In this document: positions 4,625-55,343 of the stretch, piece after piece
Position numbering within the stretch: position 1 is the stretch's first letter
How the letters are laid out: every line of letters begins with the position of its first letter
NCBI RefSeq assembly: GCF_040712315.1
Contig: NC_134024.1
Span: 25,494,658 to 25,558,657 of the forward strand
Reading direction: 5' to 3'
DNA from: Castanea sativa
Lineage: Eukaryota > Streptophyta > Magnoliopsida > Fagales > Fagaceae
Length of the DNA stretch: 64,000 nt
The notes under the pieces: model-generated
Seen by the model: the letters and a program-made list of their open reading frames with translations, nothing else
What the model was told of the DNA's origin: nothing
Database searches by the model: none
Made by a program: the position numbers and the translations under genes

Positions 4625-4803
4625 GTTGAGATGCAATCAAGGTTGCAATAATTGTCAATTTTGAGCAATTTTTTGAGTTGTTTCTTCTTGTCTTCAATGT
4701 AGAACTTTAACTTCATCAAAAAAATGTAGAGCTTTAACCACTATTTAAGACACTGAAATATTACAACTCAATTACATTGAAAAATAGTTTTGTAACTGAT
4801 AGG

Positions 4804-10756: not shown

Positions 10757-11560
10757 TGTAGGGATGATAGGCCCAGTAGTATATTTTGGGCTAGGGGTCC
10801 GGTTCGAGGACGCCTAGTTGTTCGAGAACGGGTAAACATTGTTATGGAGGTCGGCGTTGATGAATAAAGTAAGGGGTCTGGTTATGATGATCCGAGAAGG
10901 GGGTCCGAGGAGGGATGCTTCCTTGACTGAGCGAAGCAAAGGTTAGAGGGTACAATCTGCCATCTAGAAACAACGTTCCAAGATATTCTAGTGATAAGGA
11001 TATATATTGTGAGAGCACAGGACAAAGGAAAGCTATGAAATATCTAAGAGTAAGCTGCTACCACCGCATTGAATGTTCTGTAGCTAACTCTCTGGCTGCA
11101 TTAATGAGGAAGTGATACCTAAACAGTAGTTTTCAGCCTTATAGCTACTCCCAAAGATTTCAGGAAGGTGCTGATGGGACAATGATCAACACCAGCAATC
11201 TGATCTACACGTGGACGGTAGAGAAAGAAGAAGGAAGATAGTATAAAAGAGAGAGGGGACCCTAGGGGAGGGGGATCGGGAATGAAGAGAAAAACACTGT
11301 AGAATCAAGAATAATATTTGTAACCAGTCCCTAAAGAAATAAAGAGAAGAATCAACCTTCTCGGATTGTGTCTGGAGTTGTTTTTCCTTAGATAAAATTA
11401 GTTCATCTTTAATCTATTGTCATCTTTACCCACTATGATTTTTGTATAAACTCATTAGAACCTAGTTTTCTAATCTAGTCTTTACAAATTCATTGTATTA
11501 GGCCTCTTGGGCCTACTCCCATTCTTCCTTTGGGCTTAGGCGCTAAATTGCGTCCCTACA
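10757..11560 (+). repeat. Element A 5' LTR
   Basis: This 804-bp direct repeat has short terminal inverted repeats (TGTAGGG...CCCTACA) and is followed immediately by the primer-binding motif. It contains AGTATAAAAGAGAGAGG (about 11240-11256), a good TATA-box candidate, and an AATAAAGAGAAG stretch (about 11338) that could act as polyadenylation signal. It matches the 3' LTR with many single-base differences. Confidence 0.95.
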
Positions 11561-11578
11561 ATTGGCGCCATCTGTTGG
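11561..11578 (+). promoter_or_regulatory. Element A primer-binding site
   Basis: Directly after the LTR comes ATTGGCGCCATCTGTTGG. TGG pairs with the universal tRNA 3' CCA, and TGGCGCC is shared with element B at the same place. I do not assign the tRNA. Confidence 0.8.
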
Positions 11579-11613
11579 AAATCCTGGTGTTTTAGTGAAT
11601 TTAACATTCAATT

Positions 11614-12780
11614 ATGGTAGGTTCAGGTCTGAACCAGGCGGAGTCTATGGGGTCTCAGCGTCAAGATCATTTCCTCAATCTTAAATGAAGAAGGGATTAG
11701 GAGGAAAGTGTGCACACCACCCATACTAACAGGGGCCAGTCTTGGGGTGGGAGCCACGTCTCTCATGAAGAGAATGCTAGAGCCATGCAATTGGAGATCA
11801 ATCATTTGAAAAGGAAGTTGCACCGTGAACGATAGAGGCGAACTCCTTCTAATTTTGACTATTCTTCTGGTGATAATGGGGATGACAGTTACAGGCCCAG
11901 GTTAAGGACTCTAGGAATGAGGCTTTGATGTGCAAGGTATTCCCATCTAATTTGGGACCTGTGGCAATGAGGTGGTTTGATGGCCTAGGAGCAGATTCTA
12001 TTGATTCCTTTAAGGAACTCACCCTGGCATTTGGATCTCGCTTTATTACGTGTAGTAGGGTTCCTCAGCCCTTAGATTCCTTGTTGTTTATGACCATGTG
12101 AGAAGGGGAGACCCTGAAAAGGTACTCAGACAGATACTTGGACATGTTCAATGAGATCGATGGGGACTTTGACGATGTGGCCATAAGGAATTTTAAGGTT
12201 GGCTTACCTGCCGAGCATGATTTGAGAAAGTCACTGACCAAGAAGCCTGTAAGGAGTGTGCGTCGACTCATGGACCGTATTGACGAGTATAAGCAAGTCG
12301 AGGAGGACCAGCAGCAAGTAAAAGGGAAGGCAAAGGTTATCCCTCAAGATAGGAGGGATTTCAGGTCGGACAGATACAATAATAACTGGCCATGTAGAGA
12401 CTTCACTAGGTAGTCTAGGTCTACTGCTAATTAGGTGGTCAGCACAGTGTTCAGGGAACCAGTGCATTAAGTCTTGGAAAAGATTAAGAATGAGCCATAC
12501 TTTAGATGACTAAATAAGATGGGAGGAGACCCTATGAAGCGCAATCAAAGTCTTCATTGTCAATACCACTAGGAGCGAGGGAACACCATAGAAGATTGCT
12601 GAACATTGTGGAATCATTTGGAACAGTTGGTCAGAGATGGTAAGTTAAAACAATTTCTACATCAATCTAGTGGGCAAAGCGGTCATGCAAGGCCCAAATC
12701 TCAAAGAGACGCTTCTTCAAGGCCTCCTTTTGGCACATTAATGTCATCTTCGCTGCTCTAGGGAGAACTAGTTCTCACCT
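11614..12780 (+). pseudogene. Element A gag remnant
   Basis: An ATG at 11614 opens a frame that stops after 24 codons. Homology to element B gag then resumes piecewise: the phrase GPVAMRWFDGL near 11955, MFNEIDGDFDDVAIRNFKVG near 12138, and SLTKKPVRSVRRLMDRIDEY. A degraded zinc-knuckle-like stretch lies near 12560 (HCQYH-ERG-TIEDC). Gag normally forms the virus-like particle and binds the RNA. Several in-frame TAG/TGA codons and indels separate the blocks. Confidence 0.85.
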
Positions 12781-12790
12781 TTCTAGGGCG

Positions 12791-13201
12791 ATGTCTGTAG
12801 CTCGGCCACTAGCCGAGGCCTCCAACCTTGAGCTGAAGAGGGCTAGGACGGAGATCCAACCGGTGTTGAGTTTTTCGAATGAGGACAAAGTTGGAACCAT
12901 ACAGCCACATGACGATGCCTTGGTAGTCACCCTCAGGATAGTGGGGTATGACGTGAAGAGAGTGTTGGTGGATCAGGGCAGCGAGGCAGAGATTATGTAC
13001 CCTAACTTGTACAAGGGGCTAAACTTGAAACGTGAAGATTTGACAACTTATGATTCATCTTTGTTAGGCTTTGACAGGAAAGTTTTTATTCCTATGGGCC
13101 AGATTAGACTACTTGTGCAAGCCGGTTCAAAGGTGATAGAAGTGGACCTTATTGTGGTAGATGCTTATTTTCCCTACATGGCCATTGTAGCAAGACCCTA
13201 G
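12791..13201 (+). pseudogene. Element A aspartic protease domain
   Basis: The 136-codon stretch carries the retroviral-type protease core VLVDQGSEAEIMYP (about residues 53-66), where D-x-G-S is the catalytic aspartate motif. VTLRIVGYDVKR precedes it, and LIVVDAYFPYMAIVARP follows as the flap/second-strand region. The domain cleaves the Gag-Pol polyprotein. The stretch itself is open, but it ends in a stop exactly where the polyprotein should continue (PWLHALGAVSSTLHLKVKYP follows in frame after the TAG). Confidence 0.85.
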
Positions 13202-13390
13202 CTTCATGCCCTGGGAGCCGTTTCTTCAACTCTGCATTTGAAGGTGAAATATCCTTCCGGGGACCAAATTGAGGAGCTGATTGGGAGCCAGTCCGTGGCT
13301 AGGCAGTGCTTGGTGACTGCAATTATGCATCAGCCAAGAGTTGGGTCCTCGGCCTCTGCTGAGAAGGGCTTATAGCAATCAAGGAATCCA

Positions 13391-14480
13391 GTGTTATCTA
13401 CTAACGCTGTTTCAGAAAGGCCAAAGTGTGAGATGTTAGAGAAAATTGTTATTGATGATGATTCGGAAAATTTCTTTCAAGTTGGAGCTCAGCTACCTCC
13501 TCGAGAAAAGGAAGAGCTAATAGTATTGCTTAGGGAGAATATCAATGTGTTTGAATGGAGTGCTTATGAAGCTCTTGGGGTGGGTCTGAGCTTCATTTAC
13601 CATCATCTAAATGTAAATCCAGTTTTTATCCCTAGAAGGCAACCACCTCGGCGCTCATCTAAAGAGCATTATGAGGCTGTCAAGGAAGAGGTGATCAAAC
13701 TTAAGCAGACCGGAGCTATTAAAGAGGTGTTTTATCCTGAGTGGCTTGCTAATACTGTAGTGGTGAAATAAAAAAATGGAAAGTGGCAAGTATGTGTGGA
13801 CTTCACAGATTTGAATAAGATCTGTCCAAAAGACCTTTTCCTTATGCCTCGAATAGACCAGCTGGTGGATGCGTTGGCCATTCTTAGATGAGCTTTTTAG
13901 ATGCATTCCAAGGATACCACCAAATATCACTGGCTCTGAGTGATCAGGAAAAGACAACTTTCGTCACTTCTACTGGAAATTACCACTACAAAGTGATGCC
14001 TTTTGGTTTAAAGAATGCAGGGTCTACCTATCAGAGGATGATGACTAGGATGTTCGAGCCACAACTAAGTAAGAATATTGAGGTTTATATAAATGATATG
14101 GTAGTAAAGAGTAAGGTGGTGTCCAAGCAAGTGGGAGACCTCAGGAATATTTTTGAAATATTGAGGAAACATAAATTGAGCTTCAATACTTCCAAGTGCT
14201 CCTTTGGCGTGGGATCAGGTAAATTTCTAGGCTATATGGTCATTCATTGTGGAATTGATGTCAATTTTGATTAGGTTAAGGCAATTAACAGTTTACAGCC
14301 ACCTTGGAATTCCAAAGAAGTCCAAAAATTAATAGGAAGCCTTGAACCAATTTATCTCTTGGTCTACGAATAGGTGTAGACCTTTCTTCCAGTTGTTGAA
14401 TAAGTGGAAGGGATTTGAATGGACCTAGAATTGTGTTTTAGCCTTTCAATAGCTTAAGGAGTACCTTTCTCAGCCACCTG
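13391..14480 (+). pseudogene. Element A reverse transcriptase remnant
   Basis: Two open stretches (13391-13771 and 13888-14274) joined by a short broken part carry RT blocks in order. These are PRRSSKEHYEAVKEEVIKLK, then WQVCVDFTDLNKICPKD, then SFLDAFQGYHQI, then VMPFGLKNAGSTYQRMM. The catalytic YxDD motif reads YINDMVVKSK, so its first aspartate is asparagine and the enzyme should be dead even without the stops. RT copies the element RNA into DNA. Confidence 0.9.
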
Positions 14481-14482
14481 TT

Positions 14483-15350
14483 ATGTCCAGGCCCAAGGAG
14501 GATGAAGTTTTGTTTGCTTACATTGTCGTGGCTTCCTATGCCATGAGTTTGGTGCTGATACGGGTTGACAGTGGTGTGCAGATGCCAATGTACTACGTGA
14601 GCAAGTCATTGTATGAAGCAGAGGTACATTACCTACCACTGGAAAAAAGTCATTTTAGTAGTGGTGCATCTATGCGTAAGCTCCCCCACTACTTCCAATC
14701 CCATATAGTTGTTGTCTTAACCCAACTTTCGCTCATATCATTACTTTGAAGTGCTAATTACACAGGAAGGATTGCCAAATAGGGTACAATCTTAGGGGCT
14801 TTTGATATTAGGTACATGCCTCGCACCTCTATTAAGGGCCAAGTCCTCGCAGATTTGGTGGCTGAGTTTGCTGAATCCCCATGGGAGGAGAAAGTTGAGA
14901 AGTAGAACATGGATGAAAATTCAATTGGCATGGTCTCCTTGCAAAAACCTTCATCCTGGAGGGTATACATTGATGGTGCAGGCAAATTAAAGAGGATCTA
15001 GAATGGGGCTAGTCATAATTTCTCCTGAGATGATCATTATAGAAAAATCCTTAAGGTTGGGTTTCTCGACCACAAATAATGAAGCTGAGTATGAGGCTCT
15101 ATTGGTAAGGATGATTATGGTTTAGAAAATGGGAGGAAAAACAGTGGAGATGTTCTCAGATTCGAGATTGGTTGTAGGCCAAGTGAAGGGAGAGCTGGAC
15201 CCTAGAGATCGAAAGATGCAAGAGTATTTGGATCAGGTTAGGCACTTGCAGTTAGGGTTTGAGTCTTTTGCCTTATTGTAACTTCCTAGAAGCAGAAATA
15301 CCCATGTTGACTCTCTAGCCACTCTTGCAACATCCTCGGCGCAGAGTTTA
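14483..15350 (+). pseudogene. Element A RNase H plus archaeal-type RNase H remnants
   Basis: The classical RNase H part (14483-14910) includes EDEVLFAYIVVASYAMSLVL and YYVSKSLYEAEVHY. A second RNase H follows: WRVYIDGAG (about 14958), then after a one-base shift SLRLGFSTTNNEAEYEALLV, MFSDSRLVVGQVKGEL, and RNTHVDSLATLATSS near 15295. The D-G, E-A-E, S-D-S and D-S-L positions are the expected metal-binding residues of the archaeal-type RNase H found in Tat elements. Stops and frameshifts interrupt both domains. Confidence 0.88.
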
Positions 15351-15399
15351 CCTTAGGTTATCCTTATTGAAGACTTGTGTAAGCCTACCGAAATGAAGG

Positions 15400-16610
15400 G
15401 AAAGATAGTCCGTATTCATCAGATCAAAGTGGGACCTAGTTAGATGGACTTCATTGTGCTATTCCTTAAAGAAGATATCTTGCTCAAGGGGAAGTCCAAG
15501 GTTGACAAGGTACATAAGAAGGCTCCTTGGTTTTGGCTGTCTAAGGACCAAAAGCTATACACGTGGTCTTTTTCTTGACCATATTTGCTATGCATACACC
15601 CTAAGGCAGTAGAACTACTCCTAGAAGAGTTACATGAAGGGATTTGTGGAAGCCACACAGGAGGCAGATTCTTATCTCATAAGGCCCTCACTCAAGGATA
15701 CTAGTGGCTGAACATGCAAAATGAAGCACAAGAGTATACGAAGAAGTGCGACCAATGCCAGAGGTTTGCTCCAAACATTCATCAGCCAAGAGGCGTTCTC
15801 AATCCTCTGTCCAGCCTTTGGCCTTTTGCTCAATGGGGCTTGGATATTGTAGGGTCTTTCCCTAAGGCAGTAGGGAATAAGAGATGGCTGCTAGTTAGCA
15901 TAGATTATTTCATCAAGTGGGTTGAAGCTGAACCATTGGCAAATATTAAGGACATGGATGCCAAGAGGTTTGTTTGGAAAAACATTGTTACCCAGTTTGG
16001 GATTCCTCATACCCTTATCTCGGACAACAGCATTTAGTTTGATAGAAAAGCTTTCAGGAGGTATTGCTGCGACGTGGGCATTACAAATAGGTATTCCACC
16101 CTGGCTTATCCACAGGGGAATGGATAGGCCGAGGCTGTCAATAAGGCCATAGTGAATGGACTCAAGAAGAAATTGGATGATGCAAAGGAAATATGGGTGG
16201 AAGAGTTGCCACACGTCCTTTGGACATATCGGACTATAACTCGCAGATCTATTGGGGAGACACCCTTTTCAATGGCTTACGGGGTTGAGGTTGTAATTCC
16301 TCTTGAGACCGGATTCCCAACATTGAGGATGAGCTCTTTCACTCCGAGCGACAATGATGGGCTGTTAGAGCTTAGATTTGATTGAAGAACAAAGGGAAAA
16401 TGCCATGGTTCAATTGGCTTATTATCAACACAAACTCAAGCAAGGGTACGACTCAAACGTAAGGTTAAGGCCATTAGCGTCTGGAGATTTAGTATTAAGA
16501 AAAGTTTTGGGTATTGCAAAGAACCCAGCATGGGGAAAGTTAGGGCTCAACTGGGAAGGGCCATATCGCATCACCTCCATATTATCTTGAAGATTTAGAT
16601 GAAAATGTCG
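15400..16610 (+). pseudogene. Element A integrase remnant
   Basis: The HHCC zinc-binding part reads HEGICGSHTGG ... KCDQCQRFAP (about 15635-15770). The core has WGLDIVGSFP, TLISDNSI and, after stops, AEAVNKAIVNGLKKKLDD, giving the D,D35E arrangement. The C-terminal part (ALASGDLVLRKV-like near 16470; WGKLGLNWEGPYRITSI) ends near 16590. Integrase inserts the DNA copy. Stops replace Trp or Gln codons at several conserved positions (for example GYxWL and NGxAEA), a typical C-to-T decay pattern. Confidence 0.9.
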
Positions 16611-16699
16611 TACCACGCCCCTGGAATGTAAATAACTTGTGAAAGTATTATTATTAATGAAATTCCTTTTGGTCATATATCATTTATCACATTATGCGT

Positions 16700-17470
16700 T
16701 ACATTTCTTACTTACTTAAGTATTAAATAGAACCTTAGTTGTGCCAGGTTTCTCGGACCACCTACTTTGGGTAAATTATTACTTAATGTCATTTGACTTA
16801 ACTATCAAACAGAATCTTGGTCATGTCTGGCTCATCGAACCACATACCTTGGGTAAATTGATATTTTTTTTAATCATTTTTCTATGTGTTAAATAGAACC
16901 ACAGTTATGTCTGGTCCCTCGGACCACCTACTTTAGGTAAATTAATACTTCATGTCATTTGACTTATGTATTAAATAGAACCTTGGTCATGCCTAACTTC
17001 TTAGACCACATGCTTTGGGTGAATTGATATTTTTTTTAATCATTTTTCTTAGTGTTAAATAGAACCTTAGTTATGCCTGGTTCCTCGGACCACGTACTTT
17101 GAGTAAATTAATACTTCATATCATTTTTCTAAGTGTTAAACGGAACCTTAGTTATGTCTGGTTCCCCGGACCATATACTTTGGTAAATTAATACTTCATA
17201 TCATTTTTCTAAATGTTAAACAGAACCTTAGTTATGTCTAGTCCCTCGGACCACCTACTTCGGGTAAATTAATATTTCATGTCATTTTACTTAAGTATCA
17301 AGCAGAACTTTGGTCATGCCTGGCTCCTCGGACCATATACTTGGGGTAAATTGATATTTTTTATCATTTTTCAAAATGTTAAATAGAACCTTAGTTATGC
17401 CTGGTTCCTCAGACCACATACTTTAGATAAATTAATACTTTTTATTATTTATTTAACTTTCAAATAGAAC
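16700..17470 (+). repeat. Element A tandem repeat, ~9 units of ~82 bp
   Basis: The phrase CCTCGGACCA(C)CTACTTTGGGTAAATT, with variants, recurs at about 16752, 16834, 16917, 16999, 17085, 17164, 17245, 17327 and 17407. The intervals are near 82 bp, each with GTTAAATAGAACCTTAGTTATG before it. The block lies in the untranslated part after integrase. Element B has a related array in the same place. Tat-type elements are known for variable tandem repeats here. Confidence 0.9.
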
Positions 17471-18291
17471 CATCCATGCTGAATGGCAAGGACCCTCACA
17501 GTAGTGACTTGAACAAATGGGCATTTATGAGCACCATTTAAAGCATTGTAAGTATATCAAATATATTTATTATCTATTTGAGATTTGATTGTCCCCCCAA
17601 GTCCTTTAAACTTATTGACAAGTGGGGGGTTAAATGGAGTCTGATGTGGATGAATGCTCTGTTATTGTGTATATTTTTGAAGTTAAAGGTATGCTTTGAT
17701 GAGGTTGTGGACTTAACCTGTTCTGTTGCTAATCAGGAAGGTGTGATAACTGTGCTACCACTTATATAGATAACCAAATGGAGCTACATCTCATTACTAT
17801 GTTAGTTAAGTGTTAAGTAAAACAAAAACTATGTTAGGATCAATATAAATCTCACAATTATGAAAGAAAAACTTATAATTATCATTGATCTGAGCCTTCG
17901 AAAAAGGCAAGTTGCTTACAAAGGAGCAAACTGAATTACAAGTTCAAGAAACAAAAACAACAGTTTTTTTTTTTAATTTTTAAAAAGGGGACAACTCATG
18001 GTTTCATCTTTATTACAAGTTTGTCCTTTGGAGTCTTGGCAAGCTGGGTGGTTGCTGCTGCCGAGGATGTCTAACCCATACCCTTAGGATCTTCCTTGGC
18101 AGGAATGGGGATAGTTGCCAAAATCAACTCGTGGCTTTGAGAAACCACCCTTCCCTTGGAAGAATCCTTGGGTGCATCCGACAGCTTCGTCATCTCGGGG
18201 GAGACCTCCTTGGGGACTTCTTTCTCCTTATCAGGTGCACTGGTTTGCTCTGCCCCTTTTTGAGGACTTCTGGAAGGAGGAGGGTCCTTAG
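17471..18291. other. Element A internal non-coding stretch
   Basis: This part lies between the tandem repeats and the end of the antisense gene. Minus-strand codon bias continues to about 18060 (Pro/Glu/Ser-rich reading, with phrases like SPEMTKLSDAPKDSS). The 3' end of the antisense gene may therefore reach about 18050, but the frame is broken. Confidence 0.45.
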
Positions 18292-21200
18292 TTAGGACCT
18301 TTTCAATAGGGATTGTAACGTTGGGGGTTGCGTCATCCTAGGAGGCTGAGGAGCTTGATGCCCGTATTGTAGGGGGTAGTATACATTTTTCGCTCTCCTA
18401 AGTGCCGAAAAGGCCTCAACCCCTACCAAGTTGAGGGCCTCGTTCCACACCAGGAGGCAGTATGCTCTACATACCCTTGAAACCTCGGACCTGAGGGCAT
18501 CCTCAGTTTTAGCTTCCCCTACGTTGTAGCTGTCTTTTTCGGCCTGATCCTTAGGTTTCTCAGCCTCCTCTAATTTCTTTTGTAACAGTTTGATTTGCTC
18601 CTTGGCAGCAGCAAGCTCACTCCCAGCTTGGCGGAGTTGCTTGCGCTGAGTCTCGGCCTGTCTCTTCGCCCCTTCCAGTGCCACCTCAGCATTTTTCTTC
18701 TCCCTTTTAGCCTCAGTGAGCTGGGCGTTCAACTCCTTCACCCTCTTCTCAACCACATTAAAGGCCTCAACAGCAGCAATTTGTCTGCCCTCCTCATCCT
18801 TCATCTGGTGGTGAGAAAGATCCACCAACTCCTTGACTTTAAAAGTGGCTTGGACAGCCTGAAAAGGGAACTTAGCAAGTAAGTAAAGGCAAGAGTAAAA
18901 AAAAATAATAATAATAATAAATAAAAGTAAACAAATAAATAACAAATTTGGCTTAAACAACTTACCATAGCAAGGTTTCTCTTCAGACTTAGAAACACCT
19001 TGTGTTTCTTCATGGTCCTTAAATCAGTTATGTCATCGTGTAGTAGTAGTGCTTGCTCTATAGCGTTTGCCACGTACCCGGCCTTTCCCTGCTGGCAGTC
19101 CCTAATTGAGGAGTTCATAGGGAGAGGTGGCCCGTCTAACTCCAAGGGGGGATTCTAGTTTGGTACCTTGGTGCAGAGATCACGTCCTCTGTCTCCAGGT
19201 ACCCCATCACTTAGGGATCATGTTTGGGTAGTCTTGGCTACCTTGGCCCTTTTTTGAGGCTCATTCTCCTTGGAAGGAACACCTCGGCCTTCCTCCATCA
19301 CATCCTTCCCCTTCTGTTCTCGTTTCCTCTTTTTATCTACAAGTTCTTACTGAGGATCATAAGAAGTGGGAAAAGAGGGGTGTTTGGCTTGACCAACCAC
19401 CTCAGGCGCCTTGCCCCAAACTTGAGATTCCATTACCTCCATAAGGCCGGCCCTGGTTTTGTGTTGTATCCCTATTGCTTTAGGAACAATGGTGTCTTCT
19501 TGGATGCTACTTACTTGGGCCAAAGGAAGGTGGCTAGGATTGCGGATCTAAGTCTCTGGAGATTGGGGCTGGTTGAAGATGGCAAACTTGTCTTTCGATT
19601 CAGACACTTCAACTACGTCTTTTTCTTTTTCTTCTTCTTGTCCCCTTATGGTGGCTGGTTGCGAAGGGGTTGCTTCGTCCTCGGCCTTGTATTGAAGGAG
19701 TGGTTCTACCTTTAGTACACCTTGTGGTCCCAGACCTGGGTTGAGAAAACCAAGCACAGCGACATTGATTAGGGGCAGGCGCGGGTCCTTTTCCTTTATC
19801 ACACACTTCAGTGCTTGTAAACTAGATGAAAGTGGAGTGTAGCTGAGGATCAGATGTGCCACTCGTAATTGACCGTCTGTGTGGACAAACACCTCGGCTT
19901 GAAGTATTTTGTCCAAGCTTTGTTTGTTGACAAGGCTGAGGTTCGGTTTGGCGACGTGCTTATCTGCGAAACCATTAAGAAAACAAAAAAAGAGATCATT
20001 AGTACTAGAATAGCACAAATCAAAGAAGAGTTCATTTACAAGCACAAACAAGGAAAGATGGGTACAAAGTATGGAAAAGAAAAATAAAGGTTGATTTAGA
20101 AGCAATAAACCTAGGCCTACAACCCCACCTGGTTTCCCCTCTCTCGTCGGATAGGGGAGGCCATAATGCCACTCCCTAGAAATGATTAGAAAGTCCTTAT
20201 TCATGCCTTTGTTGGATTCAGGGAGGCATGAGATAAGCCTAAACTCGGGGTACCTAGTTTTTAGGAATAACTCAACCCTTTTAAGTGGTGGAGGTTATAA
20301 ACCCAGTTGACGTTGTGATGGGTAAGGTTTAAGCCCATTTTCTCATTAAGGGCATCTACACTACCCAAAATCCTAAACATGTGTAGGGCACATTGGGTAG
20401 GGGCTAATCTATGAGCCCTAAGGTAATCTTTAGTGACTGTGCCCATAGGGATTCTCATCCTTCCTTCTATAAAGGTAGGGATTGCAACTTCTACCCGGCC
20501 CAATAAAGAATAGGGTCAGGTTTGGGTTTAAAAAAAAAACCGGAAGCGAGTCGGGCCAGACCTGACCTGGTTATACACTAATTACTAAAATATCCTCATA
20601 TATATATAGATAAACTTATCCCTAACCCATCTCATTCTCCCACTCTCATCACACAGCCGCCACCCTCTCTCTCTCAAATCTCCAGCACTCTCACGGCCAC
20701 GGCCACGGCCACGACCACGACCACAGCCACACGGCCACAGCTTCACTGTCACGGCCCTCAACTCCTTAAGCAGTCATTCTCACCGACCGGCACAGCCACA
20801 CTCACGGCCTCAGTGCCTCTCTGCCGCCCCCCTTAATTGCTCACATTTCCCCCTGCGCCTTCAATACGTTCTTCTTTCTTTTGTTTTTGCCATTTCTGTT
20901 TAGGTTCGAGTTCGTTAGGATTTAGGATTGTTAGGGGTTTGGGTCCCTCTTTTTTTTTTTTTTTTTTGAGAATCTGGTTTGGGTTCCTATTGGGTTTGGG
21001 TTCGTTGCCATTCCTATTTCTCAATGATATGTTCTTCACCTTTTTTTTGTGATTTCTATGTTTGTGTTTGTGATTTTGAAAGGGAAAATAAAAAATCTAA
21101 AATTTTTTTGTTTGTGTTTGGAGTTTTGGTGGCTACTCAGGTCCGATTGAAGAGCATAATCCTAGAGTTTGTTTTTGTTTTTGGGTTTTTGATCTAAATT

Positions 21201-21638
21201 GATGATCATGATCCTGCCCTCTTGGGGTTTATTTTTTGGGTTTCTAATCTAGGTTTGTGGAGGTTTAGGGCTTTAGACAAATATTTTTTTTCTTTTTGAT
21301 TGGCCCACGGATTGGGCCTAGAGTGGCATGGGCTGGTGGGGCCCGCGGGGCGAGTTTGGGCCCTTCATAAAAAACCCATTTATTAAACAGGTCGAGTCCG
21401 GGTTGTGGGGGCAGACTCGTGGGTCAGGCTTGGGTATGGAAAAACCCGGCTCGAACCCGACCCGTTGCCATTCCTATATAAAGGCAAGCATCGGGATTAC
21501 CACTTCTCCCTACTGCCTTTCAGTATGCCAATCCCCTTACTTACAATGCCTAATGGAGACTCCTAGAGGGATTCTATATTGAGCTTTAAAGCTCTCTATA
21601 CCCTCCGCAGAGTCTACCAAGTAGACGAATCTACCCAT
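18292..21638 (-). pseudogene. Element A antisense multi-exon gene (broken)
   Basis: On the minus strand an ATG at 21638 opens MGRFVYLVDSAEGIESFKAQ, homologous to MGRFKYLVDIATRMEGFRAK in element B. The domain continues through YRIPLGVSIRHC and FIEGRMRIPM...VTKDYLRAHR to RILGSVDALNEKMGLNLTHH. The next exon begins near 19963 after a GCAG acceptor (DKHVAKPNLSLVNKQS...). It continues with a proline/acidic low-complexity stretch to FLSLKRNLAM, where a GTAAG donor (18961-18965) and a CTTTTCAG acceptor bound a 107-nt intron (18859-18965). The last exon (18858 down to 18292) is a Lys/Glu/Ala-rich heptad-like coiled coil, about residues QATFKVKELVDL through EEAEKPKDQAEK. In-frame stops and a nested hAT element break it. 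Function unknown; such antisense frames are known in Tat-type elements. Confidence 0.8.
20476..21476. mobile_element. hAT-like element nested in element A, TSD TATAAAGG
   Basis: Perfect octamers TATAAAGG (20468-20475 and 21477-21484) flank a 1001-bp segment. Its ends pair as TAGGGATTGCAAC on the left and, on the minus strand, TAGGAATGGCAAC on the right. The interior has a (CACGGC)n-like run (about 20692-20750), CT-rich sequence and T-runs, and GGGTTTGGG/CCCGACCCG words near the ends. It splits the antisense gene between the codons for GEVVIPMLAF and FIEGRM; removing it and one TSD joins the homology to element B. No transposase is encoded. Confidence 0.92.
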
Positions 21639-22100
21639 GTGTGAAAAAAGGTTGAAGGTGCTATAATGGTGAAGGGGAACTAAGAGTGCCGAGGAGAAAA
21701 GGACACTGTGTAAAGAAAAGTAGAAGGAAAAGTAAATAAAAAGGGATGAAAAGACTTACGTGAAGAAAGAAACTCTCCTTGGACTAGCTCATGATATTTA
21801 TGAGTGCAAAAGTGAAGGGAAGGAGGGGTTCAAGTAATATTTGTATCAGGGAGAGAAACAAGTGGGAAAATTCCCACCTGAGTTCCAAGAAAATCCCTAG
21901 CCGTTGGATCTGCATCACATCGTAAAACATGGGGAACATGGAGCTACAAAAATTTAATGAAAGCACGTCTCGGATGCCAAAGCGTCAGGAACGTGCATTG
22001 GGTAGTTAAAAAGGTACCTACGCAGATAGGAGTGATGTATGATGAGAGCAGGGTACTTGAGGTAATGTCGAAATCCCCCTTTTCTTCATGAGGAGCTAAG

Positions 22101-22122
22101 GAGGAGGATTTCGAGGGGCTAT
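22101..22122 (+). other. Element A polypurine tract
   Basis: The purine-rich stretch ends GAGGGGCTAT immediately before the 3' LTR. The identical decamer abuts the 3' LTR of element B on the other strand, so this is the plus-strand priming site. Confidence 0.85.
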
Positions 22123-22920
22123 TGTAGGGAAGATAAGCCCAGTAGTATATTTTGAGCTGGGGGCCCCGTCCGAGGACGCCTAGTTATTTGAGGATGGGTA
22201 AACATTGTTATGGAGGTCAGCGTTAATGAATAAAGCAAGGGGTCTGGTTATGATGAGAAGGGGTCCGAGGAGGGATGCTTCCTCGGCTGAGCAAAGCAGA
22301 GGTCAGAGGGTACAGTCTGCCATACAGAAGCAACGTTCTAGGAGATTCTAGTGATAAGAATATACATAGTGAGAGCACAGGACAAAGGAAAGCTATGAAA
22401 TATCTAAGAGAAAGTTGCTACCACCACATTGAATGCTCCGTAACTAACTCTCTGGCCGCATTATTGAGGAAGTGATACCTGAACAGTATTTTTCAGCCTT
22501 ACAACTACTCCCAAAGATTTCAGGAATGTACTAATGGGACAAGGATCAACACCAACAATCTGATCTACACGTGGAGGGTAGAGATAGAAGAAGGAAGATA
22601 GTATAAAAGAGAGAGGGGACCCTGAGGGAGGGGGGTCGAGAATGAAGAGAAAAATACTGTAGAATCAAGAACAATATTTGTAACCAGTCTCAAAAGAATT
22701 AGAGAGAAGAATTAACCTCCTCAGATTGTGTCTGAGGTCGTTTTTCCTTGGATAAAATTAGTTCATCTTTATTCTATTGTCATCTTTACCCACTATGATT
22801 GTTGTCTAAATTCATTAGAACCTAGTGTTCTAATCCACTCTCTACAAATTTATTGTATTGGGTTCTTTGGACCCATTCCCATTCCTCCTCTGGGCTTAGG
22901 CGCTAAATTGCATCCCTACA
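22123..22920 (+). repeat. Element A 3' LTR
   Basis: This 798-bp copy of the LTR begins TGTAGGGAAGATAAGC and ends GCATCCCTACA, followed by the TGATT duplication. Differences from the 5' LTR are mostly G/A and C/T changes plus short indels. Confidence 0.95.
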
Positions 22921-30690: not shown

Positions 30691-30839
30691 TCTTTATAAT
30701 AATAGTGCGATTGCGCGGACAGTGTTTTAGCATTGTACATCTAGTGTTTTTGCACTGTGCAATACTGTAGTTACAATATTTTTTTTTTAAATTTTTTTAT
30801 TCAATTGGCACTATAGCTATAGTGCCTAAATTTTTTTGT

Positions 30840-45116: not shown

Positions 45117-45869
45117 TGTAAGCGCACAATTGCACCTGGCCCCAAGAACAGTTATGGGCTCAGGCCCAATGAGCCTTAAACAATATGAATTTGTAGAGTG
45201 TGGGCTTGAAACCTAGGTTAGAAGTGTGTGAGGGTTAAACGACAAACTAAAGATTGCAAATGCTTGGAAACAACAAGGAATATAGTAAATCAGCTTCCTC
45301 GGACGTAAGCCGAGAGTTGTTCTTATATTATCTCTCTCTCTCTTTGTTTCTTTTCTTTTTAGGTTACAAAAAGTCCGTCCCCCTTTCCTGTCTTAGATTG
45401 CCCTTTAAATACTACTCTTTTGAATACTTTGTACACGTGTTGCCCCACCTCCCCCTTAGCCTAGATATTTCTTTTCTCAGTGTCTTTGAATAGTAACCAG
45501 AAGTTTCCCTTCCACTGTTCAGGTGTCACTTCCCCATTAATGCGGCCAGGGCGGTAGGTGCAGGATCTTTAATGTGGAGGTAGCAGCCTTTATCTTTGAT
45601 ATTTCTCCTACATCGGTGCTTCTAGGACATTCAAGGGTTCACCCCCTTTAACCATTGGTTTTGACCGTGTCCTTCCCTAACCTTTACCATGAAGTCCCGG
45701 GTTCTCCGGTGTCAGTCCGAAGGGAAAAATCATCCTCGGCTGGATCCTCGGACTCTCGGCGTATGGGCCGACCCGTAGTACTAACAAGTCCTAAACCCAA
45801 GAGCAGGTCGGCCTTCTTAAGCATGACCCAACGGCCCATATTCCCAACAAGGTCTTTTTACTCCCCACA
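45117..45869 (-). repeat. Element B 3' LTR
   Basis: This 753-bp LTR starts TGTGGGGAG and ends GCGCTTACA on the minus strand. It ends, on the + strand, at CTCCCCACA, next to the polypurine tract. On the minus strand TATTTAAAGGGCAATC (about 45396-45411) is the TATA-like element. Confidence 0.95.
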
Positions 45870-45885
45870 ATAGCCCCTCAAAACT
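45870..45885 (-). other. Element B polypurine tract
   Basis: The minus strand reads AGTTTTGAGGGGCTAT immediately before the 3' LTR. The last ten bases equal those of element A. Confidence 0.85.
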
Positions 45886-46377
45886 CTAATTTTCGACATC
45901 CGAGGAGAAAAATAGGGTTTTGGTCTGACGAGGATCCACTCCACACACTTCGTAAGTGATGACACGTGTGGAAATCGTTTCGCGTCCCAGAAGATGCCAC
46001 TTGGCAGTTTTATTTTCAAAAACGCGCGCATTTATTACTGTAAGTTACTCTTTGTCTCCCATGTTCAACAGTGAGATGGGCATCCAACGGTCCTCGTTAC
46101 TCCACGAAATTTTAGGCGGGACAAACATAATTTCGAGGCCGCCTTTTCGCACGTCGTGACGCTTCGGGAACCTGCGCCTTCATTTAATTCCTCGTGGGCT
46201 AATCCCATCAAAACATCAGCCATCATACCTTACTTGCAGAAAACCGTGGAAATTTGCACACCTTCAACCTTGTAAGTTCTTGCTCCTTCTATTCTTAACC
46301 TTTTCTCCTCGGTATTTGTCCTCGGCTATCACTACAAACATTCTTCCTCTTAGAGTTTAATCTCTCGTTCTTCTGTA

Positions 46378-48948
46378 ATGGGAAGATTCAAGTATCTAGT
46401 TGATATCGCCACTAGGATGGAAGGCTTTAGGGCCAAGTACCGTATTCCCAGCGACGTAGGGTTAAAATATTGCCCGGCAGAAGCCGTGGCCGGTTCTAGG
46501 AAAGAGGGAGAGGTTATCATCCCAATGATAGCCTTTATAGAAGGTGGGATGACCCTCCCAATGAGACCTGTAACTAGGGAGTACCTTCGCAACCACCGGT
46601 TGTGTCCCGATCGCGTCTCCCAAACGTTTTTAGAGTTTTGGGTAGTGTAGATGCTCTAAACGAGCAGATGGGTTTAAACCTCACCTGGCACGACGTCGTC
46701 TTTCTGTACGAGTCCCATAAACTTTCTAAGGTAGGTTATTACATTAAGTCTCGGTCCAGTACCGTTAGGCTGATCTCCTGTCTGCCCAAATCCAACAAAG
46801 GCATGAAGGACGACTACTTGATCGTGTCCGGAACCGGCACGACGGCCCCCATCGGCCCCCGCCAGCGGGGAGATCCGTGTGCGACACCTTAGGATTAACC
46901 TCCCCACCTCGCAACTTCCTTGACACTCACAAACATGCACACTGATATGTGTTTATATTTGTTTAACTTTGTCACTTGTTATGTGAATCTGACCATGTTG
47001 TTCACTTCTTTCTTTACAAATAAGCAGCACGTGCGTCCACGCTCGAGCCACCGCAGCCGTTGCCGATCTAAACCGAGTGCTTCGCTCCGAGGTGTTTGTC
47101 AAGCCGAGGACCTACAACTTAGAGCCGCCCATCCGATTTTAGGATACAATCCCATCTCCTCGACTTCCAAGAAATAGAAAACGCCATAATCGCGGTGACC
47201 GGAGGCAAAGAAAAATAAACGTAGCCCGGCCCAACTTTTTGGACGACCACGATCTCCCTGACGCCCCTGACACCGTTTTATACAACCAGGCCATAGCGGC
47301 AATTCCCCTCGCCGTGCATTCCCAGGCAACTATTGTTCCAGAGGAGCAGGTGTCTTCTTCTCATACAATAGACGAAGAGATAGATCAATTCCAATTCGAA
47401 GACACCGAACGACCTCGAGGGAATCAGTTCGTCGTGCTTTCAGACGAGGAGGAAGAAGCTACCGAGGCCTCCGGAATTGTAGGGTTTGTAGTTGCCCAAC
47501 CGGAAGACGAAGCCGAGGAAGACATGGATAGGATGCAAGATCTCTTAGTCAAAAGAGGTGCGAAGGTCGCCGAGAAGAAGACGGGTGGGTCCAAAGTTCT
47601 TCAAACTTTGCCACCTCCTCCTCCTCTTCCAGCTGAGCCAAAATTTCCCGCCGAGGATCCCAAAAAGAAGAGGAAGGGGGATACCGAAGGGACGATCAAT
47701 AAGGACCCCAAGAAACCACGACAACAACTCCCACCGGTTCAGCAGCAGAAGCTGGACAAAGGCAAGGGTAGGGCCCGCTCAGTTGAAAGTGGGGAAATCA
47801 AGGACGAGGCAGAAGTGCGCCGAGCACCGACCACCTGGTCCCCCGACCTAAGACTGGACGGCGCACCCATCTCCCCGCGCCAAGATAAGGGCGGTTCAAC
47901 AAGGCCATGCCCACCACTTGGCCGAAGTGTTGGAACGCCCTCTCCTGCTGCCCAAGGACATGGAGACCTTGGAAAAAATGAGCCAGCCACAACTATTCCT
48001 CTCACTAAAAAGAGACTTAGCGCTGGTAAGTTTTTCCCCTTTTTAGGAAGATTCCACTTTTAACAATATTTATAAGTTTTATTTTTTATTTTTTATTATT
48101 CCTGATTCCATCATACTTTGTTACAGGCCATTCAGGAGGTCTTTGTAGCCGAGAAGTTTATAGAAGAAACTCGGAAGAAGGCCAGAACTGAGCTTGAAAT
48201 CAGGCTGGAGACTGAGAAGTCCTCGGGGCACACCCTTTGCCGAGAATGAGAAGTTGACCTCGCAGGTGGCTGATCTAAAGAGGGAGAGGAATGGGGCCGA
48301 GGCGAATCCGAAGACCATGAAGACCTGCATAGAAGCGGCAGCCGCAAACTCCTTCGCGAAAGAGATAAAGAGCTCTCCCAAGCCCAAAGCGGAGTGCTCG
48401 GATCCGAAAAGGAACTTCGCGCTCGATGAAGGAAGAAGCCACCATTCCAACGCTCTTAGAGGCAATCAAGCGTACGAGCTACGAGGAAGGGGTAGCAACA
48501 ACCGAGGAGCAACCGACAGAGGCCTTCGCGGCTTTGTGCCGGGGAGTATTGTCGAAAGTCCGGGGGAAGCCCTAAACATAGCCGGAGTTCCTTCTATCTT
48601 CTGGATTCGAGGAAATCCGAGAATGTTTGGCTTCCTCGGGAGATACAAGAGATTGAAGAGGCTCCCGCCGCTACTCCTACCCCCGAGCCAACTCTCCCCG
48701 CTTCCGCCCGATGGTCCCACAAAGAAATTCTCGATCCTACGTAACCTTTAGGTTCCAACAAAGAGAAGGAAGGAGGAGGGGATGCAAAGAAGGACTCGAG
48801 CGTACAAAGGAACCCAACGTCCTTCCAACGAAGACAGCAGATAAAGGAAAGCAAGTCTTGACCCCTTTTGAGCTGGAGTTGAGAAAGACCGGGGGCACCA
48901 GTACCTCTCAGCAAGACCCCCTCCAAAAGCTTAGGACCCATCTTTAGG
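46378..48948 (+). pseudogene. Element B antisense multi-exon gene (frame-broken)
   Basis: The first exon starts at 46378 (MGRFKYLVDIATRMEGFRAK). It continues through YRIPSDVGLKYCPAEA and EVIIPMIAFIEGGMTLPM to, after a shift near 46620, RVLGSVDALNEQMGLNLTWH and STVRLISCLPKSNKGMKDDY. A likely acceptor (AATAAGCAG at 47020-47028) opens the second exon. That exon includes a 274-codon open stretch from 47239, rich in acidic (LSDEEEEATEASG), proline and Lys/Arg-rich segments that may direct nuclear import (DPKKKRKGD). It ends, in another frame, LFLSLKRDLAL at a GTAAG donor. An intron of 101 nt (48026-48126) follows. The last exon is a charged coiled-coil-like region (AIQEVFVAEKFIEETRKKAR ..., ADLKRERNGAEA). 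Element A has the same exon layout. Function unknown; it may be a regulatory or chromatin-related protein, which is speculation. Confidence 0.78.
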
Positions 48949-49249
48949 ACTTCTCTTTTTCCATATTTGAATTATATGTAATGTATATTTGAATGATTAA
49001 TGAAGAACAGTTTCATTTGCTTTTCACTTGGGTTGTATCTGTTTTTACTTTATTCTTTTTGTACTTATTACCGAAGTTTCCCATTAATACATAGCAAAAG
49101 TTTCTCAGAGTAAACAAATCTAACTCCAAGGACTGCACAATCATAACTTCCACATAATCATGCGCATATTATTAAAGATTTAACAAAAGGTGGCATGGTT
49201 GATACATTTGAACAATGCCTCGATTAAAAAGAGGAGAAGACCTCATATA
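48949..49249. other. Element B internal non-coding stretch
   Basis: AT-rich sequence follows the end of the antisense gene; AATGATTAATGAAGAACAG could serve its 3' end formation. Nothing else was identified. Confidence 0.45.
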
Positions 49250-49279
49250 ACGATGAAACCCTTGTAATGCATAGCATCG

Positions 49280-49945
49280 TTTCTAGTAGGATGTAAGGTC
49301 CGAGGACCATTCCTTACACAAATTTGCTTAACACTTAGAAATATAAAACTTAAGAGCCGAGTTAATAAACAACAACGCATTAACACCCAGACATAATATG
49401 GAGTTAACTTTGATCAAAATCGTGGTCCGAAGATAAGACTTAACCAATTTTTCGTTTGATTCTTAAAAATTACAACTTCAAATGTAAAATTTCCCAAAGT
49501 AGGAGGTCCGAGAACCCGGCATAACTAAGGTTCTGTTTAACAAATGACCAGACATCAATTTCCACAAGGTTTGTGGTCCGAGGACTGCACTTAACCAAGT
49601 TTCTGTTTGATTCTTAAAAATGATAACTTCAAATGTTAATTTTCCCAAAGCAGGAGGTCCGAAGACCCGGCATAACTAAGGTTCTGTTTAACAAATGACC
49701 AGACATCAATTTTCACAAGGTTTGTGGTCCGAGGACTGCACTTAACCAAGTTCTGTTTGATTCTTAAAAATGATAACTTCAAATGTTAATTTTCCCAAAG
49801 GTGAGGTCCGAAGACCCGACATAACTAAGGTTCTCGTTTAACAAATGACCGTACATCAATTTCCACAAGGTTTCGTGGTCCGAGGATCGCACTTAACCAA
49901 GTTTCGTTTGATTCTTTAGAATAACAACTGCGAGCATCGTAGCTA
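49280..49945 (-). repeat. Element B tandem repeats, ~75-80-bp units
   Basis: On the + strand GGTCCGA(A/G)GA recurs at about 49292, 49424, 49505, 49576, 49655, 49726, 49803 and 49876. From 49505 the units alternate between a GACCCGGCATAACTAAGG form and a GGACTGCACTTAACCAAG form, giving a ~150-bp higher-order unit. It has the same place and theme (CTCGGACC on the element strand) as the element A array. Confidence 0.88.
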
Positions 49946-50125
49946 CTCATAACTTTGAAATATTAACTCGACAAAAGCACATTTCATTAATAATAATACC
50001 TTCTAAGATTATTTACATTCCATGGACGTGGTACAATTCGTTCGTCTAGGTCGCCTTAGCCTATACGACCCTATGCCTCGCTATTGAAACAATGCGATAG
50101 GGGCCTTCCTTAGCTAGGTCCCGCC

Positions 50126-52156: not shown

Positions 52157-52299
52157 TTCGGGCGAGACAAAATGGGTGGCCGAGAAAGATATTGCTTAAG
52201 CCGTTGGAAAGCTAACTCGCGTCCTCGGTCCATTGAAACCCTTTCCACTTGTTCAACAACCGAAAGAAAGGACGGCACCGGTCAGCCGACCGAGAGATA

Positions 52300-53230
52300 A
52301 ATCTATTCAACGCAAAGAATCATTCCAAATAATTTCGAATCTCTTTTGGGTTCCTAGGCGGCCGCAAGTTCCGAATAGCCTTAACCTCGCACCGGGTTTA
52401 CCTCTATGCGCCCTACGAGTAATCATATATCCCAAAACTTTCCACCCCACGCCAAAAGAACACTTGGAGGCGTTAAGGCGCAACTTATACTTCCTTAGCA
52501 TCCGGAAGGTGTCGGCCGCATCCGTCATGTGTGAAGGTACCGTCTTACTCTTTACCACCATATCATCCACGTATACTTCTATGGTTTTCCCCGCTGTCGT
52601 TCAAACATTCGGGTCATCATTCTTTGGTAAGTAGCCCCGCATTTTTTAATCCAAATGGCATGACCTTATAATGATAGTTCCCGCTGGAGTAACGAAAGCA
52701 GTTTTCCCCGATCTTCTAACGCCAAGGAATTTGGTGGTAACCTTGAAAGGCGTCCAAGAAACTCATCCGAGGATGTCCGACAGTAGTATCTACCGCGCTG
52801 ATCAATCCGTGGCATCGGGAACGAATCTTTAGGACAGCCTTGTTTAGATCAAGAAAAGTCCACACATACTCTCCACTTGCCGTTCTTCTTTTTAACAACA
52901 ACAAGTGCGAGCCAACCATTCGGTAAAAAACTTCTTTAATAGCCCCCGCCCTTTTCGAGTTTAAGAACTTCTTCATTCACAAATTTCGAATGTTCTCGGA
53001 AGATCGCCGAGGTGGCCGCCTCCTCGAAACAATGGCAGGATTCACGTTTAAACGATGACAAATGAAGTTTCGGGTCTACGCCCTCGGAGCCTCATAGGGG
53101 TCCCACGCAAAGACATCTATATTATCCTTCGTAAATTTCAATAACTCCATCTTCTCTTGGTGTGGCAAACGTATGCCAACTTGGAAGAACCTCTCTCGGA
53201 TCATCTCGCTATTACAAACTTCTAACTCCT
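52300..53230 (-). pseudogene. Element B reverse transcriptase, frame-broken
   Basis: Recognisable blocks in order on the minus strand are KKFLNSKRAGAIKEVFY, then WTFLDLNKAVLKIRSRCHGL, then RMSFLDAFQGYHQI (52976-52716). YVDDMVVKSKTVPSHMTDAA and FRMLRKYKLRLNASKCSFGV follow (52580-52307). The catalytic YVDD is preserved, unlike element A. The blocks fall in different frames because of many one- or two-base changes, most of which create CG; these may not be biological. Confidence 0.85.
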
Positions 53231-53419
53231 CACAAACAAACCCTCATCTCTCGTCATCGCTCCGGTGCCTCTCGGAGCCGTTAATTGCGCGACTCCCGGA
53301 CGGGCAAAGTCGATGACTCAATTTCGACCGACGAAGCACCGCAGCTCGATATGCATTGTCCGGCCACTACCCGGCCGCCGAGGATTTCCTCAACATGATC
53401 CCCCGAGGGGAATTTAACT

Positions 53420-53760
53420 TTAACGTGCAAGGTAGAGGAGACAGCTCCAAAGCGTGGCAGCCATGGCCTCGGCGAGGATGGCCGTATATGGAGAGTACGC
53501 GTCAACCACAATGAAATCCACCTCGACCGTTTCAAAGGCCGGATTGAACGGGTAAACGGACCGTCCCTTCGCACAACGGCTCTCCCTTCGAAGCTTATGT
53601 TGGGAGTCGTAAGGAGTTAGATCTTCCAACTCCAACCTTAGCTCCTTAAATAGATCGGGGTACATGATATCCCGCACCGCCGCCCGATCTATCATCACCC
53701 TCCTCACATCATAGTTCCCTATCCCGAGGGTAACCACAAGAGCATCGTCACGGGGGCCGG
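53420..53760 (-). pseudogene. Element B aspartic protease domain, altered active site
   Basis: VTLGIGNYDVRRVMID leads to the active-site position, which reads DRAAVRDIMYPDLF instead of the D-x-G-S-A form seen in element A. EVDFIVVDAYSPYTAI follows. The active-site glycine and serine are lost in this reading, in a CG-dense part of the sequence, so it could be an error. Confidence 0.8.
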
Positions 53761-53828
53761 ATAGTCCCTATTTTATCCTCCTCGAGAAACCCAAGACGGG
53801 TAAAGTGCCCTTCAATCTCTTCGGCTCG

Positions 53829-55297: not shown

Positions 55298-55324
55298 AAT
55301 ATCCCTACCTCTTCTAGACTAGAT

Positions 55325-55343
55325 TCCCACGTACGGCGCCAAT
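55325..55343 (-). promoter_or_regulatory. Element B primer-binding site
   Basis: The minus strand reads ATTGGCGCCGTACGTGGGA directly after the 5' LTR, matching the TGGCGCC motif of element A. Confidence 0.82.

What the first reader, a model, noticed from the sequence alone, without database searches (positions are those of the whole stretch)
18292..21638. Conserved, intron-containing antisense gene in two divergent Tat-type retrotransposons
Elements A and B have different LTRs and differ greatly in age, yet both carry an antisense gene between integrase and the 3' LTR. It has the same N-terminal domain (GRF-YLVD, RVLGSVDALNE or RILGSVDALNE), an acidic/proline-rich middle and a coiled-coil end. 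The last intron falls between the same codons in both: FLSLKRNLAM|AVQ in A with 107 nt, FLSLKRDLAL|AIQ in B with 101 nt. Introns on the antisense strand would be removed only from antisense transcripts, not from genomic RNA, so this protein must have its own promoter. Antisense frames in Tat elements are known (for example in Grande and Retand). A shared spliced three-part architecture would be a more specific claim and points to selection on an unknown function.
Basis: partly seen in the sequence, partly recalled or inferred. Interest (0 to 1): 0.88.

Follow-up and report, generated by a model that had tools for sequence, protein, structure and literature searches.

The report
Spliced antisense gene in chestnut retrotransposons
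Two old jumping elements in what appears to be the sweet chestnut genome carry, on their reverse strand, the same intron-containing gene, which selection has kept intact across many copies and which may make a protein that recognises a short DNA word scattered through these elements.

Summary
Elements A (10757-22920, +) and B (45117-56093, -) are full LTR insertions with 5-bp target duplications, each carrying an antisense three-exon gene. Intron 2 splits the same codon pair (A 107 nt, B 101 nt); an earlier intron is also shared. Antisense ORFs with a Transposase_28 (TRP28) domain are a known hallmark of Retand elements (PMC11963269). New here: the TRP28 exon, acidic/proline exon and coiled-coil exon form one gene with conserved introns. 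All 30 genome copies examined keep a GTAAGT donor at intron 2; 28 of 29 unspliced public ORFs crossing the junction read an in-frame GTN. Median dN/dS among the 30 copies is 0.08, 0.13 and 0.14 for the three exons, so a protein was selected. Unexpectedly, one word, TCCTCGGC, is highly enriched in both elements, in LTRs, antisense upstream region, tandem arrays and coding DNA (CCTCGG: 60 of 63 window sites lie in A or B). I propose that the antisense protein is a dimeric nuclear factor binding this motif, comparable to VANC of VANDAL transposons. Transcription, splicing and binding are untested, and both window copies are broken.

The parts
10757..22920 (+). Element A, LTR retrotransposon (LTRs 10757-11560 and 22123-22920, target duplication TGATT)
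   Evidence: self-BLAST; edges; RT domain
21477..21638 (-). A antisense gene, exon 1 first part (MGRFVYLVD..., two in-frame stops)
20489..21476 (.). insertion of about 1 kb inside A exon 1 (approximate borders)
   Evidence: homology breaks off here:
20129..20488 (-). A exon 1 second part (RILGSVDALNE, TRP28-like region; one frameshift near 20260)
19964..20128 (-). A intron 1 (165 nt, phase 1, GTGGGG..TCGCAG)
18966..19963 (-). A exon 2 (acidic/proline-rich; stops inside)
18859..18965 (-). A intron 2 (107 nt, phase 0)
17996..18858 (-). A exon 3 (coiled coil and C-terminal tail; frameshifts), stop at 17996
16715..17471 (+). A tandem array (82-bp unit) between pol and the antisense gene, carrying CCTCGG
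45117..56093 (-). Element B, LTR retrotransposon (3' LTR 45117-45869, 5' LTR 55344-56093, target duplication GGAGT)
   Evidence: pol domains
46378..46878 (+). B antisense gene, exon 1 (MGRFKYLVD..., RVLGSVDALNE; one frameshift)
46879..47019 (+). B intron 1 (141 nt, GTGCGA donor as in the genome copies; acceptor decayed to CAA)
47020..48025 (+). B exon 2 (acidic/proline-rich; a stop and a frameshift)
48026..48126 (+). B intron 2 (101 nt, phase 0)
48127..48947 (+). B exon 3 (coiled coil; frameshifts)
49422..49930 (-). B tandem array (151-bp unit), homologous to A's array, carrying CCTCGG
46307..46325 (+). two CCTCGG sites 50-70 nt upstream of the B antisense start codon; one counterpart in A at 21689-21694

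Best explanation
Each element carries, between pol and its 3' LTR and on the reverse strand, its own three-exon accessory gene. SHOWN: the exon-intron layout, its recurrence in many copies and in a distantly related element family, and purifying selection on all three exons. INFERRED: it is transcribed from a promoter near the inner edge of the 3' LTR, spliced by the host and translated; because the introns lie on the antisense strand they stay in the genomic RNA and are copied with the element. INFERRED: the protein is a nuclear dimer or oligomer (long coiled coil) whose N-terminal TRP28 domain recognises a TCCTCGGC-like motif dispersed over the element (LTRs, antisense upstream region, tandem array, coding DNA), and so controls the chromatin or transcription of its own family, as VANC proteins do for VANDAL transposons. 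How likely: spliced and selected protein gene 0.95; DNA-binding regulator of its own family 0.6; this motif as its target 0.35.
For: Introns: 28 of 29 raw ORFs and 30 of 30 genome copies have the donor; 9 of 9 read-through ORFs have CAG (Q) before exon 3. Selection: dN/dS 0.08-0.14; third-position excess A vs B. Protein: TRP28-like N-domain, predicted helix of about 150 residues. Motif: 63 vs 8.7 expected in the window, 60 in A or B; 47 vs 8.1 after masking repeats; 10 vs 1.36 in non-coding parts; 21 vs 7.7 against synonymous shuffles; decay products in excess in old A only; 429 vs 59 in 30 genome loci. Analogy: VANC21/VANC6 bind short words arrayed in their own elements (PMC5735166 passages).
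Against: No transcript, splicing or binding data. Fold searches gave no significant match; most TRP28 matches are under the Pfam cut-off. All 7 motif sites in B's pol ORF share one codon phase. Exon 1 and the introns of A and B hold no CCTCGG. Under a maximal-order Markov model the hexamers do not stand out, as expected if the word is longer than six, but not proof. Many motif sites among the 30 copies are shared by descent. The motif was checked in only two independent families. The 30 copies are top-scoring ones.
Confidence: 0.5

Rival explanations
1. The protein is real and selected but acts on RNA or particles (for example export or packaging of genomic RNA, as the spliced-mRNA protein CERV does for the nematode element Cer1). 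The CCTCGG motif is then a separate cis signal, such as a site for a host transcription factor.
For: Coiled-coil accessory protein of an LTR element; CERV is needed for export of unspliced RNA (PMC10309623, abstract). Motif clusters in the LTR and just upstream of the antisense start codon.
Against: A host-factor site would be expected mainly in promoters, yet the motif is also dense through gag-pol and exceeds synonymous shuffles there. Antisense placement and TRP28 are unlike CERV.
Confidence: 0.25
2. The motif excess is inherited composition: an ancestral sequence happened to contain it, and codon or amino-acid preference (GCC GAG G, CC TCG G) keeps it; the protein does not read it.
For: One codon phase in B pol, 7 of 7; sites shared between A and B and among the 30 copies.
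Against: Survives masking of arrays and one LTR, synonymous shuffles and restriction to non-coding DNA. A and B are saturated at synonymous sites, yet 4 of 5 A sites in aligned gag-pol are identical in B against 15 of 69 composition-matched hexamers; from B's side 4 of 18 against 15 of 295.
Confidence: 0.2
3. The useful product is the antisense RNA itself (dsRNA or siRNA control), and the ORF is incidental.
For: Proposed as possible for antisense transcripts of plant LTR elements (PMC7264820).
Against: dN/dS of 0.08-0.14 and conserved phase and frame across both introns.
Confidence: 0.04
4. Chance ORF or decayed captured host gene with no function.
For: Both window copies are broken.
Against: Same gene in thousands of candidate places in the genome (8508 first-look candidates, 95 scored), in other Fagaceae, under purifying selection.
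Confidence: 0.01

Closest known systems
Antisense TRP28 (PF04195) ORFs of Retand elements (PMC11963269; Silene Retand ORF4 in PMC7264820)
   Same: Place between pol and 3' LTR, antisense strand, TRP28-type N-terminal domain, tandem arrays beside it, long pol-3'LTR region.
   Different: There described as ORFs found by ORF finder, with coiled-coil type (Smc and others) ORFs listed separately and no mention of introns; here one three-exon gene with conserved introns and measured dN/dS.
gene23 of maize Grande
   Same: Antisense gene between pol and 3' LTR, reported with its own promoter and a nuclear protein (PMC7264820).
   Different: No sequence comparison was made here; whether gene23 has introns is not known to me, since the original paper is not held.
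VANC anti-silencing proteins of VANDAL (MULE) transposons
   Same: Accessory protein of a transposable element; a short word enriched in the cognate element, also in tandem arrays; rare elsewhere.
   Different: DNA transposon, different protein family (recalled, not compared); binding and demethylation shown for VANC (PMC5735166), not here. The word here is also in coding DNA.
CERV of Cer1 (C. elegans)
   Same: Nuclear accessory protein of an LTR element made from a spliced mRNA (PMC10309623, abstract).
   Different: No homology tested; not reported as antisense in the abstract.
HBZ/APH-2 antisense proteins of HTLV
   Same: Antisense nuclear accessory proteins of retroviruses (as cited in PMC11963269).
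   Different: No relation tested; named as an analogy only.

Membership tests
Tat/Retand lineage of plant Ty3/gypsy elements | Gypsy order with integrase after RNase H, plus a second, RVT_3-type RNase H (the second RNase H as a Tat mark is recalled) | tested here: met
   B pol: RT_RNaseH (weak, under cut-off), RVT_3, Integrase_H2C2, rve in this order; A only RT identified as a domain
Tat/Retand lineage of plant Ty3/gypsy elements | RT falls in the Retand clade of a tree | not tested
   no RT tree was built
Tat/Retand lineage of plant Ty3/gypsy elements | pol-3'LTR region of 2.9-6.6 kb with antisense ORF and often tandem arrays (PMC11963269) | tested here: met
   about 5.5 kb in A including the insertion, about 4.3 kb in B; antisense gene and arrays in both
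Transposase_28 / TRP28 (PF04195) | Pfam match at the curated cut-off | tested here: inconclusive
   window pieces: no match; 4 of 4 chestnut copies 16 bits vs cut-off 26.2; 16 of 62 relatives at E<=0.1, best 9.3e-07; 11 of 47 rows carry a precomputed PF04195
VANC-type anti-silencing system | short word enriched in the cognate element and rare elsewhere, also in tandem arrays | tested here: met
VANC-type anti-silencing system | protein binds the word and causes loss of DNA methylation | not testable with these tools
   no binding or methylation data
VANC-type anti-silencing system | gene of a VANDAL MULE transposon, VANC protein family | tested here: not met
   the carrier is an LTR retrotransposon; so an analogue at most, not a member

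The most novel reading that the evidence does not exclude
Retand-type retrotransposons run a sequence-specific, self-directed regulatory or anti-silencing system: a spliced antisense gene encodes a TRP28-coiled-coil dimer that recognises the TCCTCGGC motif written throughout the element's own DNA. It would be a VANC-like system evolved independently in an LTR retrotransposon.
Probability: 0.3. Interest if true: 0.92.

Novelty: new variant of a known kind. Interest (0 to 1): 0.72.

Why it matters
Antisense genes of this type were described in the late 1990s (Grande, RIRE2, as cited in PMC7264820) and recur in Retand elements of many flowering plants, yet their role is unknown. Showing one intron-containing, strongly selected gene tells annotators how to recover the full protein, which an ORF finder would split into pieces. 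The dispersed motif turns 'function unknown' into a direct binding and methylation experiment. The introns are also a natural reporter: no intronless copy was seen among those listed, so the spliced antisense mRNA does not appear to be used as a template.

Tried and rejected
Pfam scans of the window's broken pieces gave no TRP28 match; relatives were needed. Viral contigs and genome contigs gave no relative. Foldseek gave nothing better than E 3.1 in PDB and 0.6 in BFVD; VIA-align, a second look at 128 chains, matched only the long helix; a PDB sequence search gave two matches at E above 0.6, both to the coiled-coil part.

Rejected: 'intron 2 is always a multiple of three, so it is also translated'. 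My boundaries gave multiples of three in 30 of 30 copies; by eye L005 is off by one base, so 29 of 30. 29 of 30 introns have an in-frame stop, window A and B are 107 and 101 nt, and I think that the first look of the genome search favours copies with both exons in one frame; I treat it as ascertainment, without a test. Rejected: chance or dead ORF.

Literature searches: for antisense genes, introns and splicing, and 91, 99 for VANC and the motif. Nothing I saw in their listings or in the nine papers opened reports an intron in the antisense gene of these elements, or this motif. Three older papers, looked up by DOI or PubMed id (Gomez-Orte 2013, Kejnovsky 2006 and one recalled DOI for a Steinbauerova paper), are not held, so an earlier mention is not excluded.

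Not achieved: genome searches with other families (P0013, P0109, P0004), because the machine did not answer; so neither motif nor introns were tested at DNA level in a third independent family. No transcript data were available.
Full report
WHAT IS THERE. The window holds two complete LTR insertions with 5-bp target duplications: A (10757-22920, +, LTRs 88.8% identical) and B (45117-56093, -, LTRs 94.0% identical). B's pol ORF shows RVT_3-type RNase H, integrase zinc-binding and integrase core domains; A shows reverse transcriptase. Between pol and the 3' LTR, on the opposite strand, both carry the same gene in three exons. Read by homology, A has exon 1 21638-20129 (broken by an insertion of about 1 kb), intron 1 20128-19964, exon 2 19963-18966, intron 2 18965-18859, exon 3 18858-17996; B has exon 1 46378-46878, intron 1 46879-47019, exon 2 47020-48025, intron 2 48026-48126, exon 3 48127-48947. 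Both window copies are dead: frameshifts and stops, A's insertion, B's decayed acceptor of intron 1.

HOST. Genome G000 (716 Mb, 13 contigs; window at C12:25494658-25558657) has contigs C6, C10 and C11 whose lengths equal those listed for Castanea sativa proteins P0001, P0002 and P0003. I take the host to be sweet chestnut; this is inference.

THE INTRONS. Three protein searches (each scored only about 8000 candidates; every hit with an organism name is from Fagaceae) gave 117 relatives. By their source column I sorted them into 46 raw ORFs (ENA, JGI; unspliced) and 71 annotated proteins (NCBI, UniRef, nr). Of 29 raw ORFs that carry the exon 2 end motif and continue, the next two residues are VS in 24, VR in 2, and VN, VG and II in one each: 28 of 29 have an in-frame GTN, as a GTAAGT-like donor predicts. 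Nine read through the intron, and all nine show Q (CAG) just before exon 3. Of 46 annotated proteins with the motif, 38 continue with an expected exon 3 start (GV 24, IT 8, AI 4, VT 2), 8 differ, none starts VS. Intron 1: in 7 raw ORFs the stretch between its flanking motifs is 71-84 residues; in 7 annotated proteins it is 35-37, save one with 17. A Fagus-type family, about 25% identical to the Quercus protein P0004, has intron 2 at the matching place, seen in 7 raw ORFs, so this intron is old. In the genome, 30 of 30 copies examined start intron 2 with GTAAGT; 27 of 30 end in AG at the computed boundary, two read CAA, and L005 is off by one base; lengths run 78-132 nt. Intron 1 matched a splice pattern in 26 of 30, and the four others show GTGCGA and GCAG by eye. 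No row listed spans both exons without a break, although an intronless copy would score highest; not all 190 matches are listed and only 95 of 8508 candidates were scored.

SELECTION. Between A and B, codon positions 1/2/3 differ at 135/99/206 of 318 aligned codons; synonymous sites are saturated (pS 0.80) while pN is 0.36 (0.27 in exon 1); the integrase comparison gives pN 0.18. Among the 30 copies (medians over pairs): exon 1 dS 0.37, dN 0.029, ratio 0.08; exon 2 0.44, 0.061, 0.13; exon 3 0.42, 0.063, 0.14; 26, 24 and 23 of 30 copies have no stop in the aligned codons. The 30 are the best of 95 scored out of 8508 first-look candidates, so the ratios are biased low; I judge that such a choice could not turn a ratio near 1 into these values when dS is about 0.4.

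THE PROTEIN. The N-terminal domain matches PF04195 (Transposase_28, TRP28), mostly weakly: 16 of 62 relatives at E<=0.1, best 9.3e-07; 11 of 47 rows carry a precomputed PF04195; 4 of 4 chestnut copies tested match at E 0.011-0.013, below the curated cut-off (two of the six first sent were left out). AlphaFold2 of P0004 gives a mixed helix-strand domain of about 130 residues (pLDDT blocks mostly 65-92, one loop at 42), a low-confidence middle, and one helix of about 150 residues (437-587) at up to 96; intron 2 falls about 13 residues into it. The Fagus protein P0072 gave a poor model overall, with a similar long helix. Fold searches found nothing significant; several of the 17 rows, all at E above 3, are bacterial or viral DNA-binding domains such as CodY and SaeR, a lead only.

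AN UNEXPECTED MOTIF. CCTCGG occurs 63 times in the window against 8.7 expected (largest of 100 shuffles 16); 60 lie in A (19) or B (41). After masking arrays, one LTR of each element and A's insertion, with a dinucleotide model, TCCTCG, CTCGGC and CCTCGG, overlapping pieces of TCCTCGGC, are the three most enriched hexamers in B; CTCGGC and CCTCGG are the top two in A, where TCCTCG is fifth. Over both, CCTCGG is 47 vs 8.1; the rest of the window has 3 vs 2.4. With a maximal-order Markov model they do not stand out, as expected for a word longer than six. All 15 TCCTCGGC sites are in A or B. Not only coding: 10 vs 1.36 in non-coding parts, though introns and exon 1 of both copies have none. Not only amino acids: 21 in coding pieces vs 7.7 in 1000 synonymous-codon shuffles, maximum 15. 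In old A the deamination products are also in excess (CCTTGG 16 vs 8.2, CCTCAG 12 vs 6.9), but not in young B (8 vs 7.1, 1 vs 5.8), so the word was probably denser when A was active. In aligned gag-pol, 4 of 5 A sites are identical in B against 15 of 69 matched hexamers; from B's side 4 of 18 against 15 of 295 (small numbers). In the 30 antisense-gene loci it is the top hexamer (429 vs 59 expected); coding 138 vs 88.7 in 200 shuffles, maximum 112; upstream of the start codon, a stretch that includes part of the 3' LTR, 166 vs 13, most sites there being shared by descent. The gag-pol side of four more copies has 23-27 per 8-9.5 kb against about 2.7 expected; four arbitrary 6-kb stretches, of low G+C, have none. 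Against a pure DNA-level reading, all 7 sites in B's pol ORF share one codon phase. The arrays of A and B are homologous (blastn E 6e-45) and carry the motif, although Retand arrays are reported as highly variable (PMC11963269).

HOW IT MAY WORK. An element-borne protein with a putative DNA-binding domain, a long coiled coil, and a short word written all over the cognate element and its tandem arrays resembles the anatomy of VANC21 and VANC6, which bind YAGTATTAY and AGTTGT[CA]C words arrayed in their elements and remove silencing (PMC5735166, passages). I therefore commit to a self-directed DNA-binding regulator; the link from protein to motif is inference, and so are dimer and nuclear site. 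A possible 5'-UTR intron donor (GTAAGT about 105 nt upstream of the start codon in 28 of 30 copies) hints that the transcript starts further upstream, near the LTR; no TATA word is conserved there (2 of 30).

RELATION TO WHAT IS KNOWN. Antisense TRP28 ORFs are known in 97% of Retand clusters, found by ORF finder, with Smc-like and other ORFs listed separately; the word 'intron' does not occur in that text (PMC11963269; parts 1-3 of 5 and a word search). The 2020 review asks for a search for antisense and spliced transcripts and reports an own promoter and a nuclear protein for Grande gene23; 'intron' does not occur (PMC7264820; parts 1-2 of 3 and a word search). A December 2025 review says plant LTR elements generally lack introns, naming Ogre and EVADE as exceptions (PMC12786077, passages). 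That the separately listed coiled-coil ORFs are exon 3 of the TRP28 gene in other species is my inference. Other papers were seen only as passages (PMC6317226, PMC11728184, PMC3091746, PMC13317346) or as abstract and outline (PMC10309623).

Noticed in passing
10757-22920 and 45117-56093: TCCTCGGC/GCCGAGGA is dispersed on both strands through both elements and nearly absent from the rest of the window; possible target word of an element-encoded protein.
   Followed up: yes
16715-17471 and 49422-49930: The tandem arrays between pol and the antisense gene of A (82-bp unit) and B (151-bp unit) are homologous at about 66-76% identity and carry the motif.
   Followed up: partly
L001-L030, about 105 nt upstream of the antisense start codon: A conserved GTAAGT (28 of 30 copies in one 5-nt bin) could be the donor of a 5'-UTR intron; A has one about 120 nt and B about 106 nt upstream.
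   Followed up: partly
20489-21476: Insertion of about 1 kb in A's exon 1; a flanking stretch of roughly 30 nt looks duplicated, longer than usual for DNA transposons. Not identified.
   Followed up: no
L001-L030, intron 2: Intron 2 lengths are multiples of three in 29-30 of 30 copies despite poly-T length changes; probably an effect of how the search picks copies, but not tested on random copies.
   Followed up: partly
4699-6976, 30822-32360 and 39459-39791: Other local direct repeats outside the two elements, not identified.
   Followed up: no
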